Positions 9,655-32,930 of a stretch of 64,000 nucleotides of DNA are shown piece by piece; position 1 is the stretch's first letter, and each line of letters begins with the position of its first letter. The DNA lies in the NCBI RefSeq assembly GCF_001625215.2, contig NC_030382.2, forward strand, positions 46,589,364-46,653,363, in the 5' to 3' direction. The notes beneath the pieces were generated by a model that saw only the letters and a list, made by a program, of their open reading frames with translations, was not told the origin of the DNA and did not search any database. The translations under genes and the position numbers were made by a program. The stretch is from Daucus carota subsp. sativus (lineage: Eukaryota > Streptophyta > Magnoliopsida > Apiales > Apiaceae).

Positions 9655-9969
9655 TCAGGCCTTTTCAGCACGACGAATAAATACTGATTCTAAGTCCGGT
9701 GGAGTAGCAAAATACTCTCTGACACCGCCATAATAACATATAGGTTTAGCCTTTCGCTTCCTTGGAGCAGGCGGACACCGAAATATACTGGAGGTTCTTG
9801 ATTCCTCGTATGTTGGTGTTGTGTTTCTCGAATTTTCGTCATCTTCCTCAGTCTGCTGCTTGGTAAATATGGGTTTCAACGAAGCACGTAACGTGATTCC
9901 GGCTAACAGAATTCGTTTCTTGGCTTCGGACTCAACGATCATGCCTTCAGTCTTCTTGGAAAAACCCAT
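9655..9969 (-). CDS. SMR6: SIAMESE-related cyclin-dependent kinase inhibitor, SMR6 type
   Basis: A single-exon gene for 104 residues. SMR proteins are plant-specific nuclear inhibitors of CDK-cyclin complexes that slow division and favour endoreduplication. The start MGFSKK, the LLAGITLRASLKPIF block (about residues 21-35), an acidic stretch with NTTPTYEES, the family motif CPPAPRKRK (about 65-73) and the C-terminal EYFATPPDLESVF (about 85-97) match SMR6-like members in order. The MGFS start and the LR-LKPIF block separate this subgroup from SIAMESE and SMR1. Known SMR6 proteins are of similar length and also intronless. Expression control is not visible in the sequence. Confidence 0.88.
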   Translation of the reverse strand: MGFSKKTEGMIVESEAKKRILLAGITLRASLKPIFTKQQTEEDDENSRNTTPTYEESRTSSIFRCPPAPRKRKAKPICYYGGVREYFATPPDLESVFIRRAEKA

Positions 9970-11910
9970 TTATATAAATGTGAGGATAAATGTAAGTCTG
10001 ATACAAGTAGGTAGCTAGGTAGAATGAGAGAATTTAGTAATGAACATTGTATAAGTAGTGAAATTATGGGGGGTTTAGAAGTAAAGAAGTGGAAGAGAAT
10101 CTAAAGGAAATTGAAAACTTTGAAGAGAAAGTGAAGGGTGGGGGAAAAGGAAGTTCTTTAATTATAGGGAACGTTTGTCCTTTTTATCTTTTCTTTAAGA
10201 AGCTTTGGAGGTGAGTGGAAATGAGTAAAAAAGAAGGCTTTGAGGTTTGAGCTCAACAAGAAACACTGTTATAAATAGATTAGATTCATGTATATGATTG
10301 TTTTTCTGAGGCGTTCAAACAATCTTTGATTTATTTGAAAAATCTCCGATTAACTTTTTTTATTGATGTGTTGATTACATTCTGATTTGACTAAATATTT
10401 CCAATTTATTAAAAAAAATTCTAATAAATTCTCGATAAATTCTGAATTGGTAGATCAACCAATTAATTCTGAATCAGTAGATTAGACGATTAATTTTGAT
10501 TTCCGATTTCTATGACCATAGTCTTCGACACAAAAATAAGTTAATCTCATCTCTATAAATCTTATGCAAACTTGAAATGAGAATATATTATATATGTATC
10601 CAATGTAACGAGAACATCATACAAAATATAAAAATTTCGAAAATGGAAAGGGAGAGGGAAAGTGAGAAAGAAGGCGAGGAGTACGTGAGGCAAACAAAGG
10701 GTAGAAGAGGAGGGATGAAATTGGGCTTGAAAGTTGGAAGACAGCAGGTAAAGGAATTTTTGGATTTGACTTTATTTTTGGCGCTCCTTATTCCTCTGCT
10801 TTTAGCCGGGAATAGAATATATTCTTATTCTTTTATTATGTACATTTGATAAAAAAAATATTAGCCTGTAGGTCATTTTCTGACTTTACATCATCAAATA
10901 TATTTATGTTTTGTCCCGTCACTTGTAACAAATTTCTTATCCAAGTTAATACTTTATGCATCCTAAATTAGGTGAAAAAAAGATCTAGGGAGTATATTTT
11001 TAGAGATTTTAATAAGTTTAATGTTGTTTCGCTAAACATATACAAATATCTCTTGATTTTGGGAAATGGTTAATTGAATAAATTTGAATATTCATGTACT
11101 CGTTCACTAATATCATCCTCCAAATTTAGATGATCGAGTACCTGACTTTGTTCTCTCAGGCTCTGCTGAATTTCAGATTATCCTCCTCTTGAAGCTGAAT
11201 TTCAGATTGTCCTCCTATTGAAGCTCCGTCAGCATCTTATTTGGATTAACTAAGCAGATATCTGTTTAAAATTAGTATACCTCAGACCTCAGTACAAAAA
11301 CATATTATACGAGGGTTACTCCAACAATCACCATATCAAAATACTCCCTCTGTCCCCGTGTTTACGTTCACTGTTTGCATGCATTTTGAGGCTCCTATAA
11401 AGTATATTTATAGATTTTTTTTTTTGAATAAAAGTTTAAGTATCAAATTTTTATTCAGAGAAAAAAAATTAAAAAAATATATTATGAAACTATACTTTAA
11501 ATGAGTGTGGAAAAACGTGCCGAAAAGTAACGTAAAAAAATGAGGGGGACAGAGGAAGTAATACTTTATTCTGGTTAAACATTGTGTTTCCATGAAAACA
11601 GGTGTTTAAATCCATAGGCAGGACATATTTCATTAGAACAAGAATTTTTTTGATTACCCAGGGAAGTACCACAATTTACAAATTCCATCTACATATAGCA
11701 AAAGAAGTCTGCGGAATAAGAAAGCATCCATATTCAGATGGACCTATGTAGGAATGTCTGATGCTTTAAGGAAATGTTTATACCCCCAGCGCCCAGCGGG
11801 GAGGGGGAGGGGCGTAAATGGAAGTAAAATAGACAGGTTTGTTGGTATAGCTAAGAACTTCCAACAGCTGAAGAGATCTTTACATAGAGAAATATTCAAA
11901 GCACTACTGC
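9970..11910. other. Intergenic, promoter side of SMR6 and 3' side of GGT
   Basis: Apart from the Stowaway-like MITE at 11344-11558 I see no element or gene. A purine-rich piece at about 10075-10150 lies upstream of SMR6. A 90-residue open frame at 10577-10849 is low complexity at its start and has no recognisable family. CCGATTAA-type blocks at 10330-10510 resemble the insert at 2430-2570. A 26-bp near-direct repeat (GAAGCTGAATTTCAGATTRTCCTCC) lies around 11160-11220. Confidence 0.5.
11344..11558. mobile_element. Stowaway-like MITE
   Basis: A 215-bp element between TA dinucleotides. It starts CTCCCTCTGTCCCCGTGTTTACG and ends CGTAAAAAAATGAGGGGGACAGAGGAAG, which mirrors the start. Its interior is AT-rich with no coding capacity. 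It lies 350 bp beyond the stop codon of the aminotransferase gene. Confidence 0.78.
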
Positions 11911-15983
<4,073 letters not shown>

Positions 15984-16454
15984 GATGGAATATATAGATT
16001 CCTATGAAGCCAACCTGAGAGGACGAAGTAAATCAGCACATACTGCCTGCACTAAATTCATTTCTTGACAGACGCACAAATTGATCCACAGCTCTATCAG
16101 TATACACTCAATTGCCATAACTAAAATCCAAATTGCCTATACAAAATATTAAAAATAGTTTAGAAAGTTGATAGGCTGATTCATAGTTAATTAAACTAAT
16201 TATGTAACAGTTTGAACAATAACAGCCTTCTTCCATAAAAGTAACAAAGCATCAGTCTTGTAATTGTGGTTCCCTCCTTTTCCAGAATACTTACCGAGCA
16301 TTCTTCACCGCAAACAGGACCACGCAGTAACACATACAAGACAAAACAGGAATCACGTGGTTCAGTCTAGCAACACCAGAATATTGCTAATTTCAATCGT
16401 AGGGTTTAGGAAATATAGTATCACGGGAGCTTAATCTTGCTTCAATGCTAGTCG

Positions 16455-18980: not shown

Positions 18981-19560
18981 GTTATTATTGTCGGCTGCAT
19001 TCATAAATTTCATATCTTTTTTGTTTTTAATCATTTCCTCCCCATTTTCTAAATTTTTTTATTTGAAAATATCTCAATTCTCAAAAAGACCGGTTATTAT
19101 TGTGTGCTATATTCATAAGTTTTTATTTATTTATTTTTGCTTTTAATCATTTTCTTCCATTCTCTAGATTTTCTATTTTAAAATATCTTAACGGTTAAGA
19201 AAGCGGGTTATTTTTGTTTGTTGCATTCATTATTTTTATATTATTATTTTCTTAATGTTTAATCATTTCCTTCGATTCTCAAAATAAAATTATCCTAAAA
19301 TATCTCAACTCTCAAAGAGACCATTTTTATTGTCTGATGTATTTATAAATTTTTATATTACTATTTTCTTTTGTTTTAATCATTTCTTTTCCTCTAAAAT
19401 TTTTATTTTAAAACATCTCTACTTTCAAAGAGACTAGCTATTATTATCTGCTGCATTCATAAATTCTTCTATTATTATTTTCTTCAACTTTTAATTGATA
19501 TTATCTGCTACATTCAAAAAAAAATATTTTTATTTTTATTTTATTGTTAATCATTTCCTT
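18981..19560. repeat. Degenerate tandem array, unit about 115 bp
   Basis: Five diverged units start near 18981, 19092, 19206, 19322 and 19438, spaced 111-117 bp, with a shorter sixth start near 19497. Each begins with a GTTATTATTG-like stretch, then TCTGCTGCATTCATAAAT. Next come TTTAATCATTTCCTT and AAAATATCTCAA, and the unit closes with CTCAAAGAGAC. The copies differ at many positions, so the array is old. It ends about 390 bp before the start codon of the secreted peptide gene. Confidence 0.75.
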
Positions 19561-19948
19561 CTGGCTCAAAAATTTGGATTAACTTTTTTGTTTGTATCGA
19601 CCATCGAGCGTGTGAACAAGTTCATTTTCGGCGCTGACCAGTCCAAGTCCAGGATTCACACATACAAGTTAAAATTAGTTTTCTATTCACACTTAACGCT
19701 TATCTAGAATTAACTTTTGTTCATGAATTCTCGATTGCCCACGTTATATACACAATATATCCCCGTATCTGTGGATGGAAAATATATTAGAGCTGTTGCT
19801 GTTCTGATGATGAAGCCTAATTATATTTATTCAAAGTCTTGCAAAAGCGTCAAACTTCTACTTCTTTAAATACCTGTATTGTATTAGACTAATCAAAAAC
19901 TAAACAACACGCCAAGGAAGCTTGCTGCTGGTGAACTTGAGCAAGAGA

Positions 19949-20437
19949 ATGGCCTCTTTTAATAAGCTCAATATTATAGCACTTCTCCTAATCTTCTTAT
20001 TATCAGCTTGTCGTGCTCCATGCAGTTCTGCTTCCTCACTTCATCAACGTACCTTTTTTTTCCCTTAATTATGTCTTTTGCAATGTATACAACACACAGA
20101 ATAAGCACACACTAAAGCTCGTTACGGGGTGTCTCTATTTTGATTACGCTATTTAGATATACTTTCTATGAACACCTAAAAATTTTGAGAATTTGGGAGG
20201 ATCGGTCATCTGATAATATGTTTAACAGGTGAGAAGCACAATCCGAGGTGGTTTTCGAATTGCAGACATGGATACAGAAAGATGGGTCATATGAACTGTG
20301 AAAATGCAGGTGGTATAACAAACACGGGAAGGGTTGCTTGGTCTGAAAGTCTCAGAAAGGCATTACCACCACCGCCAGCGCCTACCCAGAGAATGGCATC
20401 ACCTTATGGAGGCGGTCCACCGCCCACAAGAAGATGA
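19949..20437 (+). CDS. Small secreted peptide precursor, unknown family
   Basis: I do not recognise this gene. Two exons, 19949-20048 and 20229-20437, join across a GT-AG intron in one frame for 102 residues. Residues 1 to about 28 form a clear signal peptide: a short basic start, the hydrophobic core NIIALLLIFLLSACRA, then small residues. The rest is basic, with two cysteines in SNCRHGYRKMGHMNCENAGG. It has a dibasic-like SLRKALPPPPAP and ends ASPYGGGPPPTRR just before the stop. A signal peptide, a variable middle and a Gly/Pro-rich C-terminal tail are what precursors of plant signalling peptides look like (CLE, CEP, PIP, IDA families), but the tail matches none of their consensus motifs that I know. 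A TATA-like box lies 80 bp upstream. It could also be a lineage-specific secreted protein with no signalling role. Confidence 0.68.
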
Positions 20438-25143: not shown

Positions 25144-27667
25144 GGCGGTCGTAATCTTGAGTTGTCCCTTGGAATCAAGAAATGGCGAGACTGACTACAA
25201 TTCCCTCATTTGGAGTGTGGGCTGGTACTCGCGGTTAGTGTTCGGATTTTGGTAGTGTATTTGGGCCTGATCTGGGTTGGGGCCCGCTTCCCGACACGAG
25301 CATATATAGCGGGGGATTCATCGGATACATTCTCCTTTCTTTTCCTTTCTTTTTACATTACTCTGACACGTATTTTAAGACACATATAAAGCATAATTTT
25401 AAAATTTTTTTATAAAAATTTAGATAGTAAATATTTATTCACAAAAAAAAAATTCAAAATAATTTATCAAATTATATTTTATGAGAGCATTAGAATGTAT
25501 GTCGCGAGCCCCCGCTCCCTAATATAAACAATTGAGAGCTACGAAGGAAGTGTATATCTACGTTTTCCGAATGAGCACCGTCGGGATTATAACGTTTTTA
25601 TTAATATATTTAGAAGTTTTTAGTTGTTGGACTAGGGCTCATGCGGTGTTTAAAACATTTCGTTCAAAGGTTAAAAATCACTAGACATGTTAAAAAATGT
25701 TATAATCTCGATAACTGGACATTCATCTTACGCTCAAAATTGTGCAGGTTTTATAAAACAACGGGAACCCATATAATTATTTGAGAGATATAGGATGACC
25801 AAATTATTAATATAGTTATATAAAATTATTTGTTATGTATTTGTTATGATATGATTTATTATATGTAACATAGTCATAACATGCTAATTTAAATTATGCA
25901 TACAAATAAAATGCAATACATATATTAAAGGTTTATGAAATGACTCATTTCATTTATATGTTTGTATGTATAACAAATTTATTTTAAGATATCGAAGAAA
26001 ATTAATAACAAACAAGAAAAACGCGATAATTTCTGTATCTTGTCCTGAAATTGAATAAGTTATGTGCAGAAAAAGTTGGATACAAAACTCAAAAAAATGA
26101 CGCAAATTTAATTATTTTGAGTGTTGAGGGACAACTTTAAGGTTTATAAGCAATGGAATGCAACAATGTCACATGATATTATCCTCTTTTTCAAAAAACA
26201 AATATTATTCATGATATTTAAAAATATTTATTATTATATTTTCTAATTGTAAAATTTATGAAATACAACGTTAAGAAGCTAATAGTATCTTCAAACATAT
26301 AGTACCCAAACATGTAGTACCATTGAATGAAAATTATTAATATATTAAATAGAAATGTAAACATCGTATATAGATAAGTTTTCGATATTGCGGGATTTGA
26401 ATGTCACTCACTATATTGAAGTGAAATATTCGAGGAATTGATTTAGGCAACACATCACCCGCTAATGACGATTATAATGATTTACATTAAACTTGAATGC
26501 TTTTATATTTGACTTTAACAAGAGAGTGATGACAATAAATCACTTTTTCGATCAATGACCAACTCAGTCTTCAGGTTGTAGTGAGTTACCCGAATCCTGT
26601 TATTTTAATATGATAATTGATAATATGACATTTGCTGCATATTTGTAGTCTTTTAACAAATATAATCATAAGGACTTGACTAAAATTATATATAAGCGGA
26701 ATGTATGGTTGGAGCGTGAGATTTTGATAAGATTATCAATATTTTTTATTTTTACAACTCATTATTTAGGTAATAGTATTACTGGGTTGGAGTAGAGCAT
26801 GCATTCAAATTTATAATATAATATAATTATGACAAAAAAACAATTTAAATATATAATTCTTTAATATTTTTTATAAGTTATAAAGAAAAATATAAATTAT
26901 CATCTTTGGGAATAAAAATTATTAGAGCATCTCCAACGGCGTTGGCTATAATCGTTGGCTAAATTGGACCTGTAAGACTTTATGTAAAATTTGCTGAACT
27001 TGTAACACATTTTGCTTCAATGGTATTGGCTATCTTGGTTGGCTATAATTTAAAAGTAGTATGTTATTAATATTTCAAATTGTTAAAATAGAATATATCA
27101 GTTCAATATGGTAATAAATGATGTGCAATCTTGCTACAGATTTTCTTACAGACCTGTAGAGATTCGACAAATTTAGCCATCCATAGGAGGTTGGCTAAAA
27201 TTATAGACAACAGGTGGGCGTGGTTGGAGTGTACTTTTTTGACGATGTTGGCTATAATTTTTAATTATGGTATGCCAATTCACATTTTAGCTAAAGGTAC
27301 TCTATGGTTGGAGATGCTCTTAGCGTGGGCGCATTCAAGCAAATGTTGATTAAAATACAGAAGAAGTGACCTGCTTCTGAGTTTGAATTGCACATCTGCC
27401 GCAGCCAACCCTTGATTTTCTATTTGCAGGTTGCTGAAGGCAGTCTATAATAAGAATTGAGAAATACAATTAGCTCATATCAAAGCGATTCCAATGAATT
27501 GAATTATAACACAGGGAATGCAAGGCCCCTGGAATCTCTCGATTTTGATTCTACGTCGCTGTTGAATAAACATATCAATCAGATCAGCAGATCTAATCGA
27601 ATTACAACGACTCTGATCTGATCGCGCTAATTTGAAACCCTAGGAAGAATATTTGTTATATTATACT
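25144..27667. other. Intergenic, divergent promoters; one Tourist MITE
   Basis: This 2.5-kb AT-rich stretch separates the divergent TrpD-like and AP-1 genes. The only element I can name is the Tourist-like MITE at 26935-27319. Open frames here are short and the one at 27131-27349 lies within that MITE. A telo-box-like AAACCCT at 27635-27641 lies just before the AP-1 start codon. Confidence 0.55.
26935..27319. mobile_element. Tourist-like (PIF/Harbinger) MITE
   Basis: The 385-bp element has the typical GAGCATCTCCAACGGCG start and TGGTTGGAGATGCTC end, between TTA trinucleotides (26932-26934 and 27320-27322). That is the target preference of PIF/Harbinger elements. The interior repeats TTGGCTATAATT in both orientations. 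It ends about 350 bp upstream of the AP-1 start codon and could affect that promoter. Confidence 0.83.
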
Positions 27668-30600
27668 ATGGCTGGCGCGGCCTCGGCGCTGTTTTTTCTC
27701 GATATCAAAGGCCGTGTTCTGGTCTGGCGCGACTACCGAGGCGATGTAACCGCTGCTCAAGCTGAGAAATGCTTCACCAAACTCATCGATAAAGAGGTTT
27801 ATTTCCAGAAATATCTTCAGTGTCTTTCATTTTCTGCTTTCGGTATCATTCGATTTCGCAATTTTAGTTACTGCTGTATCGGCAGTATATTTACTTGTTT
27901 GATCTACCTGCTTATCAGCAAACGAAGCCACATATTTATGTTGTGTATCTCTAAGTTCCTACTTTCTGTATCATTTAATCTGCAATTTTGGGGAATTTTT
28001 GCTACTTCGCTGATATGTTTGCTTGTTCGTAAATGTAGCGCGAACAACAGAATTGTACGATTTATAAGTTGCTTGATTTGGTTAAGATCAGTTTATGCTG
28101 TGGCAGCTATTTAGTCAATTGGTGTTGTTATGAATTGGTTTTGTCTTGATCCATTTGTGTTGCGAGTGCATATGGATTGAAATGAACTGTGAATAATTGG
28201 TTGTGTTGTTTTGATTTACTGTAGGGAGATGCAGATACGCAGAATCCGGTTGTGTATGATAATGGCGTCACATATATGTTTATACAACACAATAATTTGT
28301 ATTTAATGACCGCATCCAGGCAGAATTGTAATGCTGCCAGTCTCCTCTTATTTCTGCATCGCGTAGTTGACGTAAGTTTCAGCGACTATGCAGATTTATA
28401 TATTTTTGCATGTCCATTCAGTATTATCATTGTAGATAATTAGTCCAGTTTTAAATTTATTTTTGGTGACAGGTCTTTAAGCATTACTTCGAGGAGCTAG
28501 AAGAGGAATCACTTAGAGATAATTTTGTAGTAGTGGTATGCTAAACTTCTATTCCGTGTAAAGTACCACTTTTGTGACCTTAACAGAAAGTAAAATGATG
28601 CGCGAATGTTATTGTGCTGATCCAAATTTTGCTATACACAGTATGAGTTACTTGATGAAATGATGGATTTTGGTTATCCCCAATATACTGAAGCAAAGAT
28701 TCTTAGTGAGTTTATCAAAACCGATGCTTATAAAATGGAAGTTTCGCAGAGGCCTCCCATGGCTGTGACAAACGCAGTGTCTTGGCGAAGTGAAGGAATT
28801 CGTTACAAGAAAAATGAAGTAGGGAATTTTAAATTTATATACTTTTATATCGACTATTGGAAGCTATTCAAGAGAGCAGATCATAAATATTCTTTTTATG
28901 CCCAGGTGTTTTTAGATGTTGTTGAGAGTGTTAATATACTCGTGAACAGCAATGGGCAGATAATTAGGTCTGAAGTAATTGGTGCATTAAAGATGCGGAC
29001 GTATTTGAGGTAGATTCTTCGCCAATTTCAAATATTTTTGCGACATACTATCCTACTGAGTTTTGTTATATCACTTATAATCTTTAGTTAAAGTGAATGT
29101 TAATTGTGCCCAGCGAATGGTTTTGATAATTTTATAACTAAAAATGAAGACACTGTTGGTGAGAATATAACTCATGATCTAAAACATTCATCCTTTTTTC
29201 CCTTCTAAATACCGCAAACATGAATTGTGATTATTTATATCGTACCGGAATATATGCATGTTTGGTTGTCAACTTGTCACTAGAAAGGTCTGTTAGCAGA
29301 AGAGTTTAGCCTGTGTCTTTCTTTACATGTTATGAAACTGATATGTTATTTCGAAGATGATTGGCATCAAATCATTTTCACTCTGCTACGAAATGATTTT
29401 TTGGTTGTAGGGGCAAATTGGTTCCCAAATATTATGTTCCTATGTTTTTGCTTTTTTAATATATGTACCGTCTAGAACATAAATGATCCGCCTGTCTGTT
29501 GTAGTGGTATGCCTGAGTGCAAACTTGGGCTAAATGATAGAGTTTTGCTGGAAGCACAAGGACGGGCAACTAAGGGAAAGGCCATTGACTTGGACGACAT
29601 CAAATTCCATCAGTATGTTATCTACCTTCTACATTACATTTAGTACTATGTTTTTGAAGGGCATTTTTACTAATATTGTGTGTACTATGAATTTTCCTTT
29701 CTTCTGTCAATAATCATCTTTTTCATTATATATTTTTGTGTATTTCATTTTCCTGTTATCTGGCTGAATTCACTGTTATAATAGGTGTGTGCGTCTTACT
29801 CGATTTGAAAACGACCGGACAATATCCTTCATACCTCCTGATGGAACTTTTGATCTCATGACATACAGACTCAGCACCCAGGTAACTTTTGCACATAGTG
29901 TTCTTTTCATTGTCTTTTCCAATTTATCTTTACATAGAAGCATGTTTGCCATGACGAGTGTTATTATTTGATTTTAGGTAAAGCCTCTCATATGGGTGGA
30001 AGCTCAAGTGGAAAGGCATTCTAGGAGTCGTATGGAAATCATGGTCAAAGCGAGGAGCCAGTTCAAAGAACGAAGGTTTAGTCACTAGTCTGGCATATAT
30101 CTATATCTTAAAGTTCTATTTTAAGGCCTACTGTATGAGCTAGTTTGTTATTCCAGCACTGCAACAAATGTCGAAATCGAGTTGCCTGTTCCCTCTGATG
30201 CCATAAATCCAAATCTGCGGACATCAATGGGATCTGCTTCGTATGCACCTGAAAATGATGCAGTGCTTTGGAAAATCAAATCATTTCCGGGTGGAAAGGT
30301 AAATTTGTACTCCAATGTTCTTTTGTAATAATGTAAATACATTACCTGGCGGCTGGCGCTATTGATATTAAAGTCTATATTTTCATAATATTTATTTCTT
30401 GTGCGAAAAATATTGATTGGTTTTGTTCTGTCTACAATAATGTGTAGGAGTATATGTTGAGAGCGGAGTTTAATCTTCCCAGTATTACAGATGAAGAAGC
30501 AGCTCCTGATAGAAAGGCTCCAATACGAGTGAAATTTGAGATACCATATTTTACTGTTTCAGGAATACAGGTGCGCCCTTATGCATATGTACTTTAATTT

Positions 30601-31787
30601 ATGGATCTAGAAACACTTTCATGTCGTGGATGGTGGTTCTTCTCTGTGAATCGCAACAGAACGTTGTTTGTTTTCTGTACTAATTTTGGGTATATATATA
30701 TATATATATATATTTCAAGAATCAGTCAAATAGAGACATCATCCTTCTACTACTGTGTGTATGTTATTGTCAAGGTCTTGTTATGCAAAATATTATATAT
30801 ATGGCCTGCTTGCTGTCAAAACATATTGACAAAGGGATATTTTCCTTCAAACCAATAATGTCATTTCCTCGAGATAAGGTAGATATCCACATTTTTAATC
30901 CTCTACTAGACTACTACTACATTTAAAAAGCTGATGATTATCTGAGTCTAATATGTTTAATCTAAAAATTGCAACTAATTTATCTTTATAAATGAATATA
31001 CACGATAAACAATCAACAGCATAACTCTGTATCCCGCATTGGCTGGTCATAAAAAAGTAACTACACTTGTACATACAAGCTTCGAAATGGAAAATGCTTA
31101 GATTTGGTAGCATAAATAAGTGATGCCTCAATGTTTCTATTATTCCATTGCTTTAGAGTCGCATAAGGTGTGGTGCTGTTCTTCTCTACTTAATTGCGAC
31201 GTTGCATGGATTTAGATGGTCTCTGATCATTGCATATGCTTCACATGATCGTGGTATTGGGTATTCTGTACTTTTGTTAGTTTCTTAGACAATACACATA
31301 ATGTAATCAGCAAGAACTATTTTATTACTGCTTTGGAGTTTAGGGTAGAAGTGTTTTTGTTAATGTTTACATAGCATGTCCACCTTATAGCAGTTTTCTA
31401 TTGAGAGTATTCGAAAGATTGCCCAAGATTGTCTATATAAGTTGGTACTTCTTTCTTATGCACTTTACTGCTTTAGTATCTGATCATTTGGGGCGTGGGG
31501 AACAATGTTATTTATGTATTTAAGGCTTCTGAGTTGCGTATTATTCTTTATAGCATGTTCAATAATGAAAGGTATCATTGATAGTCTGTTGACACCTCTT
31601 TCGTGGTTTTTCTGTGTTGTACATGCTTAACCATAATGTGGAATATCTTATGTTTGATGATTATAAATTAGTTATCGGGGTTTTGTAGGTCCGATATCTG
31701 AAGATCATTGAGAAGAGTGGGTATCAGGCTCTACCTTGGGTGAGATACATAACTATGGCCGGTGAATATGAATTAAGACTCATGTAA
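27668..31787 (+). CDS. AP1M2: AP-1 complex subunit mu
   Basis: The medium subunit of the AP-1 adaptor recognises tyrosine-based sorting signals and helps form clathrin-coated vesicles at the trans-Golgi network. Eleven exons join in frame: 27668-27796, 28225-28371, 28473-28535, 28642-28818, 28906-29009, 29505-29612, 29785-29881, 29978-30075, 30157-30298, 30448-30570 and 31689-31787. They give 428 residues, the length of Arabidopsis AP1M2. The longin-like N-terminal domain starts MAGAASALFFLDIKGRVLVW. The linker ends at IRYKKNEVFLDVVE. The C-terminal mu-homology domain runs to the end, with SGMPECKLGLND, FIPPDGTFDLMTYRL and the family's closing ITMAGEYELRLM. It is called AP1M2 after the ubiquitously expressed Arabidopsis copy (HAPLESS13). 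The sequence alone cannot separate it from the AP1M1 paralogue. Confidence 0.96.
30691..30713. repeat. (TA)n microsatellite
   Basis: About eleven TA dinucleotides in the last, 1.1-kb intron of the AP-1 mu gene. A likely length-variable marker. Confidence 0.9.
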
Positions 31788-32930
31788 AAGCCACTTGTCC
31801 AGCATTGTTTCAAGTCCTGCAGTATGACCGCGGTATCGCTAGTGTTCAGCACAGGCTTTTAATCATCAGGAAGCGAGAGGAGTTACTTGTCATAACCAGA
31901 ATTGGTGATTTTTCAGTAAAAAGTTTACTCACGGGCAGCACATGTTATGTGTATTGTTGTCTTTAATAGACTACAGGTTTTACTTTCTTGTATAATCAAT
32001 CAAAATTTGATCTTGCACATTCTTTATAAAAGAAATCCATTTTTGTTGTTTCTTGTCTACTTACTGTTTAGAACATTTTGTCCAAGGGCAAAGGTCATGT
32101 ATTTTGAATCAAATGTCTCTGGCTTGGCTTGTAATTCGTGTTTTGGAACAAGTCGACTACATACCTGTATTTGGATGATGGATCGATAGTTATATGATAT
32201 AGTATTGAACTGGTTTAAGGAATCGGCAATCCAATGCGTAGCTACACTTGAACGGAAAGATGCATTAAAAGATAAATGTTTAAGATGCAAGAAAATAATA
32301 GTTGCTTATTTATTTGGAATAAAAATAATTATTAGTCTTTTTTGATGGGTGACTTTCGACTTGAATATAACAATTACCATATACAGTTCAGCGTTAGCGT
32401 TAGTATTTGTCACTTTGGATATTGGAATATGTAGGACATTTTGCTTCCAACGACAACAGGAATGTTCTAACCGTGTGCTTGTGCTTGATGTTATGTTATC
32501 CAAAATAAAGAAAGCAAAGTTCCAACTGTCCACTAACTCGTACAGGATACGAAATCCATATATATCATCACATCAAGCAAACCAGGCTACAAACTCACTT
32601 GCACATCCTAAGAATTACAACAAGAGGATTCTAACATTCAATACTGAAGGTCTAAAATCAAATGAAATTTGAACAAATTCTAACGTTCTAATATATTGTA
32701 GCACAAGGCAGAAGAAACCCACTCCATGAAATTTAGATACAATCTCTGTTTACTAAGCTACAGCCTAAGATCTGGTGCCCCAAAATAAAACAGTTTCACA
32801 GGGGCTGCCAAGAAATAATCAACTAAAGAAAATGAACATATCTACATTAGAGTTGGAAGGGCCTAACAAAATGAACATGTTTCCACCAAATGTAGGTAAG
32901 TTTCCTCCCCTTCTCTTTTCTGTCGGGGTA
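31788..32930. other. Convergent intergenic region
   Basis: Holds the 3'UTRs of the AP-1 mu gene (plus strand) and the lipase-like gene (minus strand). No gene, RNA or element is recognisable. Open frames are below about 110 residues and without domain signals. Confidence 0.6.

What the first reader, a model, noticed from the sequence alone, without database searches (positions are those of the whole stretch)
19949..20437. Unrecognised secreted peptide precursor with a Gly/Pro-rich C-terminal tail
The sequence shows a two-exon gene for 102 residues with a clear signal peptide, a basic body with two cysteines and the tail ASPYGGGPPPTRR ending at the stop. From known families, plant peptide hormones have this layout, with the active peptide at the C-terminus. 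The tail does not fit CLE, CEP, PIP, IDA, PSY or RGF consensus motifs that I know. I infer it could be a member of an undescribed signalling-peptide family.
Basis: partly seen in the sequence, partly recalled or inferred. Interest (0 to 1): 0.72.

Follow-up and report, generated by a model that had tools for sequence, protein, structure and literature searches.

The report
Secreted-peptide precursor family, internal conserved motif

Summary
The two-exon gene at 19949-20437 is real. The window's own 441-Mb plant genome holds at least 13 further intact relatives: 11 in a tandem array on contig C9 and 2 on C7, plus degenerate copies. C2 and C9 are collinear duplicated segments and C7 keeps part of that gene order, so the family looks old. 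The window protein has no Pfam or PDB match at E <= 10.

The C-terminal tail is among the least conserved parts (pooled dN/dS 0.81; 1.25 for window-versus-C9 pairs). The constrained parts are a two-cysteine R-K-[LM] loop (0.28), an internal W-S-x-S-L-[KR] motif (0.10) and the proline block after it (0.39). The layout resembles Brassicales PROSCOOP precursors, but the family has two conserved cysteines, lacks SxS in both C7 members, and no homology to PROSCOOPs was shown.

Most likely it is a secreted peptide-signal precursor whose active part is internal. Expression, processing and receptor are untested; the species is unknown.

The parts
19949..20048 (+). Exon 1: signal-peptide-like start and the segment SASSLHQ(R)
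   Evidence: GT donor at 20049; S27, A28, S29 nearly invariant in 14 members
20049..20228 (+). Intron, 180 bp, phase 1, GT..AG
   Evidence: equivalent position in 10 of 11 intact C9 copies and both C7 copies
20229..20437 (+). Exon 2: mature region and stop codon
   Evidence: tblastn of own genome
20261..20299 (+). Two-cysteine loop C45-RHGYRKMGHMN-C57, with R-K-M resembling an RxLx subtilase site
   Evidence: dN/dS 0.28 over 66 pairs; Cys pair in 13 of 14 members; PROSCOOP RxLx/RxxL sites described in PMC13157962 (passage)
20300..20338 (+). Fast-evolving linker, residues 58-70
   Evidence: dN/dS 1.15 over 66 pairs
20339..20356 (+). Most constrained motif, residues 71-76 W-S-E-S-L-R
   Evidence: dN/dS 0.10; S72 and S74 invariant in the 12 C2/C9 members; S72 replaced in both C7 members
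20369..20386 (+). Proline block, residues 81-86 P-P-P-A-P-T in the window protein (SPPPAP in most relatives, starting one residue earlier)
   Evidence: P82, P83, P85 invariant in 14 of 14; dN/dS 0.39 for 81-86
20387..20434 (+).
   Evidence: dN/dS 0.81 pooled, 1.25 window versus C9; P98 invariant and P99 nearly so, the rest variable
19865..19872 (+). TATA-like TTTAAATA, 84 bp before the ATG
   Evidence: sequence

Best explanation
The gene encodes a secreted precursor, one of at least 14 in this genome, that is processed outside the cell into a short signalling peptide. Proposed steps: the signal peptide sends the precursor to the apoplast. A subtilase-type protease cuts near the conserved R-K-[LM]-x site in the two-cysteine loop and others trim the rest. 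The released part is the internal W-S-x-S-L-[KR] motif with the proline block that follows it (S/P-P-P-[AP]-P, prolines hydroxylated), and a leucine-rich-repeat receptor kinase reads the paired serines and prolines. The C-terminal tail is a disposable propeptide. Shown here: gene structure, family, tandem expansion, origin on duplicated segments, regional constraint. Inferred: secretion, cleavage, hydroxylation, receptor and signalling.
For: 14 intact members vary in linker and tail but keep the signal region, Cys loop, SL and PPxP, with SxS in 12. Pooled dN/dS 0.10 for residues 71-76 against 1.15 for the linker and 0.81 for the tail; window-versus-C9 pairs give 0.21 for 71-86 and 1.25 for the tail. 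Median whole-CDS dN/dS 0.51 over 66 pairs. Tandem array and size match how PROSCOOP precursors are organised (passages). SxS is essential for SCOOP12 activity (passages), and native SCOOP10 peptides carry SxS with hydroxyprolines (passages). A single-sequence model of exon 2 shows no confident fold, mean pLDDT 52.7; this agrees with a propeptide but is weak evidence.
Against: No transcript, peptide or receptor evidence. Only paralogues from one genome were available. Both C7 members read S-F-E-S-L, not SxS. One of the 14, the short copy l, lacks the first half of the Cys loop. The two conserved cysteines could mean a folded mini-protein. The window gene alone gives modest proof of constraint: 259 to 450 of 4000 neutral simulations stay stop-free. 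In four pairs chosen as independent (f-g, k-n, e-i, m-l) the tail's dN/dS (0.48) is not far above the 71-86 block (0.33). The window gene has no W-box within 1 kb. Even true SCOOPs can be weak ligands: native SCOOP10 peptides gave little ROS or growth response (passage).
Confidence: 0.5

Rival explanations
1. The whole mature protein is a small disulphide-linked, basic secreted defence protein (antimicrobial-type); the Cys loop is the working part and the Pro-rich end is a spacer.
For: Cys pair in 13 of 14 members; mature net charge positive in 13 of 14, +9 in the window protein; tandem expansion and fast linker.
Against: The strongest constraint lies outside the Cys loop, at 71-76. Only one Cys pair. 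Member l lacks the loop's first half yet keeps SxSL-SPPPAP. Member d has net charge -2.
Confidence: 0.18
2. It is a small hydroxyproline-rich cell-wall or arabinogalactan-type protein; SPPP and PPP are glycosylation modules and the protein has a structural role.
For: Proline block in 14 of 14 members and P98 invariant; signal region present.
Against: Mature proline content is only 7-17%. The most constrained residues include S72, S74, L75, K51, C57, which a structural glycomodule would not be expected to need.
Confidence: 0.15
3. True PROSCOOP homologues: the family shares descent with Brassicales SCOOPs and acts through a MIK2-like receptor.
For: Two exons in 13 of 14, 81-105 aa, tandem array, internal motif, SxS in 12 of 14, RKLx in 9 of 14, against the PROSCOOP traits (passages).
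Against: Conserved cysteines, whereas PROSCOOPs were described as lacking cysteine. C7 members lack SxS. Published searches found PROSCOOPs and MIK2 only in Brassicales (passages). No sequence similarity was measured; no PROSCOOP profile is held.
Confidence: 0.07
4. The window copy is a decaying duplicate without a function; the family's work is done on C9.
For: Its ORF alone is weak proof of selection; no W-box upstream, while 9 of the 11 C9 copies have one within 1 kb.
Against: Intact frame and splice sites, and it keeps every residue invariant among the 12 C2/C9 members; window-versus-C9 dN/dS is 0.21 in 71-86 and 0.39 in 27-57.
Confidence: 0.1

Closest known systems
PROSCOOP/SCOOP (serine-rich endogenous peptides, Brassicales; MIK2 receptor)
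   Same: Signal peptide, 2-3 exons, about 70-120 aa, tandem cluster (37 kb in Arabidopsis), conserved motif not at the C-terminal end, SxS with hydroxyprolines, RxLx/RxxL subtilase site (passages of PMC6382344, PMC13157962, PMC9784617)
   Different: Two conserved Cys (PROSCOOPs described without Cys); SxS absent in the two C7 members; conserved L-[KR] and PPxP after SxS; spread over old paralogous segments; relationship to Brassicales unshown
CTNIP/SCREW (HSL3 receptor)
   Same: Small secreted precursor with two conserved cysteines needed for activity (passages of PMC9191895)
   Different: There the Cys pair lies in the C-terminal 23 residues, ten positions apart (C58/C68); here it is internal, 11-13 positions apart, and the more constrained motif lies after it
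IDA/IDL and PIP/PIPL
   Same: Proline-rich core and signal peptide (core: PMC11331138 passage; details recalled)
   Different: IDA-type precursors have a conserved C-terminal motif (PMC13056886 passage); here the C-terminus is variable and has no HN or GxGH end (end motifs recalled)
HypSys (hydroxyproline-rich systemins)
   Same: Hydroxyproline peptide from a secreted precursor (PMC13157962 and PMC11756074 passages); SPPP-type block recalled
   Different: No SxS or Cys loop is recalled for HypSys; no sequence comparison was run

Membership tests
PROSCOOP/SCOOP | Precursor of about 72-117 aa, 2-3 exons, tandem arrays | tested here: met
   81-105 aa, two exons in 13 of 14, 11 intact copies over 28 kb of C9; definition
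PROSCOOP/SCOOP | N-terminal signal peptide | tested here: inconclusive
   Hydrophobic N-terminus in 14 of 14 by Kyte-Doolittle; no predictor available
PROSCOOP/SCOOP | SxS motif | tested here: inconclusive
   Present in 12 of 14; both C7 members have SxxS (SFES) instead
PROSCOOP/SCOOP | RxLx or RxxL subtilase site N-terminal to the motif | tested here: inconclusive
   RKLx in 9 of 14; window protein RKMG; others RKMA, RKMG, RKVD, TKLD; definition
PROSCOOP/SCOOP | No cysteine in the precursor's mature part | tested here: not met
   Cys pair in 13 of 14 members; absence of cysteine stated
PROSCOOP/SCOOP | Perception by MIK2 with BAK1 | not testable with these tools
   needs binding or response assays
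CTNIP/SCREW | Two Cys inside the C-terminal 23 residues | tested here: not met
   C45 and C57 of 102 in the window protein; definition
IDA/IDL | Conserved C-terminal EPIP motif | tested here: not met
   C-terminal residues variable, dN/dS 0.81; EPIP-C definition in PMC13056886 passage
Any Pfam family | Match to a curated model | tested here: not met
   0 families at E <= 10 for the window protein; for 14 members three families at E <= 1, one member each, best E 0.023
   0.32 versus 0.52 mean column identity in 12 members

The most novel reading that the evidence does not exclude
An undescribed eudicot family of phytocytokines that arrived at, or shares an older root with, the SCOOP solution: a paired-serine (SxS) ligand plus hydroxyproline block, cut from a cysteine-bearing precursor by subtilases and read by an LRR receptor kinase. 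It would predate the tandem expansion and sit in the same syntenic slot on old paralogous segments, which would make SxS signalling wider than the Brassicales.
Probability: 0.15. Interest if true: 0.82.

Novelty: new variant of a known kind. Interest (0 to 1): 0.52.

Why it matters
If right, the locus gives a ready set of 14 natural variants that mark the residues that matter (K51, C57, S72, S74, L75, P82, P83, P85), so one peptide-synthesis experiment could find the active fragment. SxS has been called unique to SCOOPs among known plant secreted signalling peptides, and SCOOPs have been reported only in Brassicales (PMC11331138, passages). An SxS family on old duplicated segments of a plant of another order would test whether that ligand type is older or arose twice.

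Tried and rejected
Species: 11 contigs and 441 Mb suggested Ophiorrhiza pumila. Rejected: the closest own-genome match to a segment of the solved strictosidine synthase 6s5j (recalled to be the Ophiorrhiza enzyme) is 48% identical. Paper searches by assembly size (42 papers, 40 listed) and contig length (6 papers) found nothing usable. A Bowman-Birk search was negative but had no positive control. A SABATH methyltransferase fragment matched the xanthosine methyltransferase chain 2eg5 best (E 1.2e-33, identity not shown). The species and its order stay open. A Brassicaceae origin looks unlikely only from recalled Arabidopsis gene order.

W-boxes: 26 in 13.7 kb upstream of 14 genes against 15.3 expected from background DNA; 24 of 2000 random sets were as high. 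Ten of the 26 come from two recent duplicates (f, g) and the window gene has none, so no claim is built on it. An earlier shuffle control looked stronger but is the poorer control.

Trees of 14 members do not resolve where the window copy falls. C8 segment: SMR-like, aminotransferase and AP-1 mu genes are there, but no peptide gene turned up in four whole-genome protein searches, which score only their best candidates, nor in 10 kb of the roughly 67-kb interval. Weak family matches judged chance: Conotoxin E 0.023, PyocinActivator and DSL in one member each of 14; the bacterial model Eex_IncN in the window protein only (E 3.6e-6, but 26.8 bits under its cut-off of 33; residues 6-60, so in part the hydrophobic start; 1 of 14 members). 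Paper searches for motif strings: six strings, 0 papers; 'SPPPAP' gave 53 papers, 30 listed, none on plant signalling peptides by title. In one search the SxSL and RKx columns show the first match in the protein, which for some members lies in the signal region; the counts given come from the alignment.

Full report
WHAT IS THERE. Exon 1 is 19949-20048, the intron 20049-20228 is GT..AG in phase 1, and exon 2 is 20229-20437. It gives a 102-residue protein with a hydrophobic N-terminus and the tail ASPYGGGPPPTRR. A TATA-like TTTAAATA lies 84 bp before the ATG.

IT IS ONE OF A FAMILY. The window lies in an unnamed 441-Mb genome of 11 contigs (C2:46589364-46653363). A search of that genome found the gene itself and a cluster on C9 at E-values down to 3e-18. 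Modelling the cluster gave 11 intact genes between 45183364 and 45211619 (28 kb) on the minus strand: d, e, f, g, h, i, j, k, l, m, n. Degenerate or partial copies (a, b, c, x, y) lie among and beyond them and stretch the array to 36 kb. Ten of the 11 have two exons with the same phase-1 junction; l is a shorter intronless ORF. Two further intact two-exon genes lie on C7 (9289655-9290049 and 9291057-9292292), and C3 holds a fragment. Total: 14 intact members, a lower bound because the search scores only its best candidates. The window protein has no Pfam hit and no PDB hit at E <= 10.

AGE. The window and the C9 region are collinear: SMR-like gene, class I/II aminotransferase, peptide gene(s), AP-1 mu-type adaptin (Pfam support for aminotransferase and adaptin exons; the SMR name is recalled and that protein had no Pfam hit at E <= 0.01). 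Relatives of the SMR-like gene and aminotransferase also stand together on C8 and C7, with the adaptin on C8. C7 carries two peptide genes 37 kb from its aminotransferase; none was found on C8. Rough dS values between C2 and C9 are 0.65 (SMR), 0.72 (one adaptin exon) and 0.51 (one aminotransferase exon). SMR values of C2 and C9 against C7 and C8 are 1.48-1.98 or saturated, and the adaptin exon of C8 differs from C2 and C9 by 1.71 and 2.02; the aminotransferase exon does not separate the segments (0.37-0.65). I read this as a later duplication C2/C9 on top of an older one, with the peptide gene present before both. That reading is inference from few short exons.

WHERE SELECTION ACTS. Over the 66 pairs of the 12 C2/C9 members, pooled dN/dS by region is: signal 0.58, residues 27-34 0.34, 35-44 0.31, Cys loop 45-57 0.28, linker 58-70 1.15, W-S-x-S-L-[KR] (71-76) 0.10, residues 77-80 0.49, 81-86 0.39, tail 0.81. 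These pairs share ancestry, so the numbers describe the family and are not independent tests. Four pairs chosen as independent (f-g, k-n, e-i, m-l) give 0.46 (27-57), 1.13 (58-70), 0.33 (71-86) and 0.48 (tail), so the contrast for the tail is weaker there. Pairs of the window gene with each of the 11 C9 genes give 0.21 for 71-86, 0.39 for 27-57, 1.24 for 58-70 and 1.25 for the tail. The last 15 residues have mean column identity 0.32 against 0.52 for residues 30-87 (12 members; 0.29 against 0.46 with all 14); 162 of 20000 random column sets were as low (234 with 14). Residues invariant in the 12 are M1, K51, C57, S72, S74, L75, P82, P83, P85. With C7 included they are K51, S74, L75, P82, P83, P85, P98 (both C7 members do have a second Cys, which the alignment places in a neighbouring column, see the Cys-pair listing). 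The window gene's own reading frame is modest evidence of function: 259-450 of 4000 neutral simulations stay stop-free.

HOW IT LIKELY WORKS. The anatomy fits a secreted peptide precursor with an internal active block. The nearest functional parallel is PROSCOOP. Gully et al. describe 14 genes with two or three exons, 72-117 aa, signal peptides, a 37-kb tandem cluster, no cysteine, and a motif not at the C-terminal extremity (passages of PMC6382344). SCOOP12 activity needs SxS and MIK2 (passages of PMC11331138 and PMC8448819). Most PROSCOOPs carry RxLx or RxxL sites proposed to be cut by subtilases (passage of PMC13157962). Native SCOOP10 peptides carry SxS and hydroxyproline and are largely unstructured, though they gave little ROS or growth response (passages of PMC9784617). 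This family shows SxS in 12 of 14, RKLx in 9 of 14, a proline block in 14 of 14, and no confident fold for exon 2 (mean pLDDT 52.7, single sequence). It differs by its Cys pair (13 of 14) and by SFES in place of SxS on C7. So it works like a SCOOP-type precursor in layout, but I do not file it as a member. CTNIPs also need two cysteines, but there they lie in the last 23 residues (passages of PMC9191895).

LIMITS. All relatives come from one genome; no plant collection could be searched, so 'undescribed' rests and the paper searches only. Of the other family libraries, NCBIfam (prokaryote models) gave one match below its cut-off, in the window protein only. Species and order are unknown: a first guess of Ophiorrhiza failed its test. 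No signal-peptide predictor, transcript or peptide data were available. W-box enrichment upstream of the family is borderline and absent from the window gene. Papers were seen as search listings and passages only, none in full.

Noticed in passing
window 19019-19484: Four degenerate copies of a 114-bp AT-rich tandem repeat upstream of the gene (72% matches), ending about 465 bp before the ATG.
   Followed up: no
window 9655-16300 and 27600-32000 with C9:45168001-45231000 (L009-L015): Clear collinear duplicated segments: SMR-like gene, aminotransferase and AP-1 mu-type adaptin flank the peptide gene(s) on C2 and C9; further relatives on C8, C7 and C4.
   Followed up: partly
C2:55869217-55889644 (L031-L033): Five strictosidine-synthase-like exons with the same score at spacings of 5.05-5.09 kb, which suggests a very recent tandem array or an assembly effect.
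   Followed up: no
C9:45183k-45219k: Members f, g, h differ by dS 0.10-0.22, so the tandem array has duplicated recently; broken copies are mixed with intact ones.
   Followed up: partly
window 20300-20338 (linker, residues 58-70): Linker between Cys loop and SxS motif has dN/dS 1.15 pooled and 1.13 in four pairs chosen as independent: relaxed or diversifying.
   Followed up: partly
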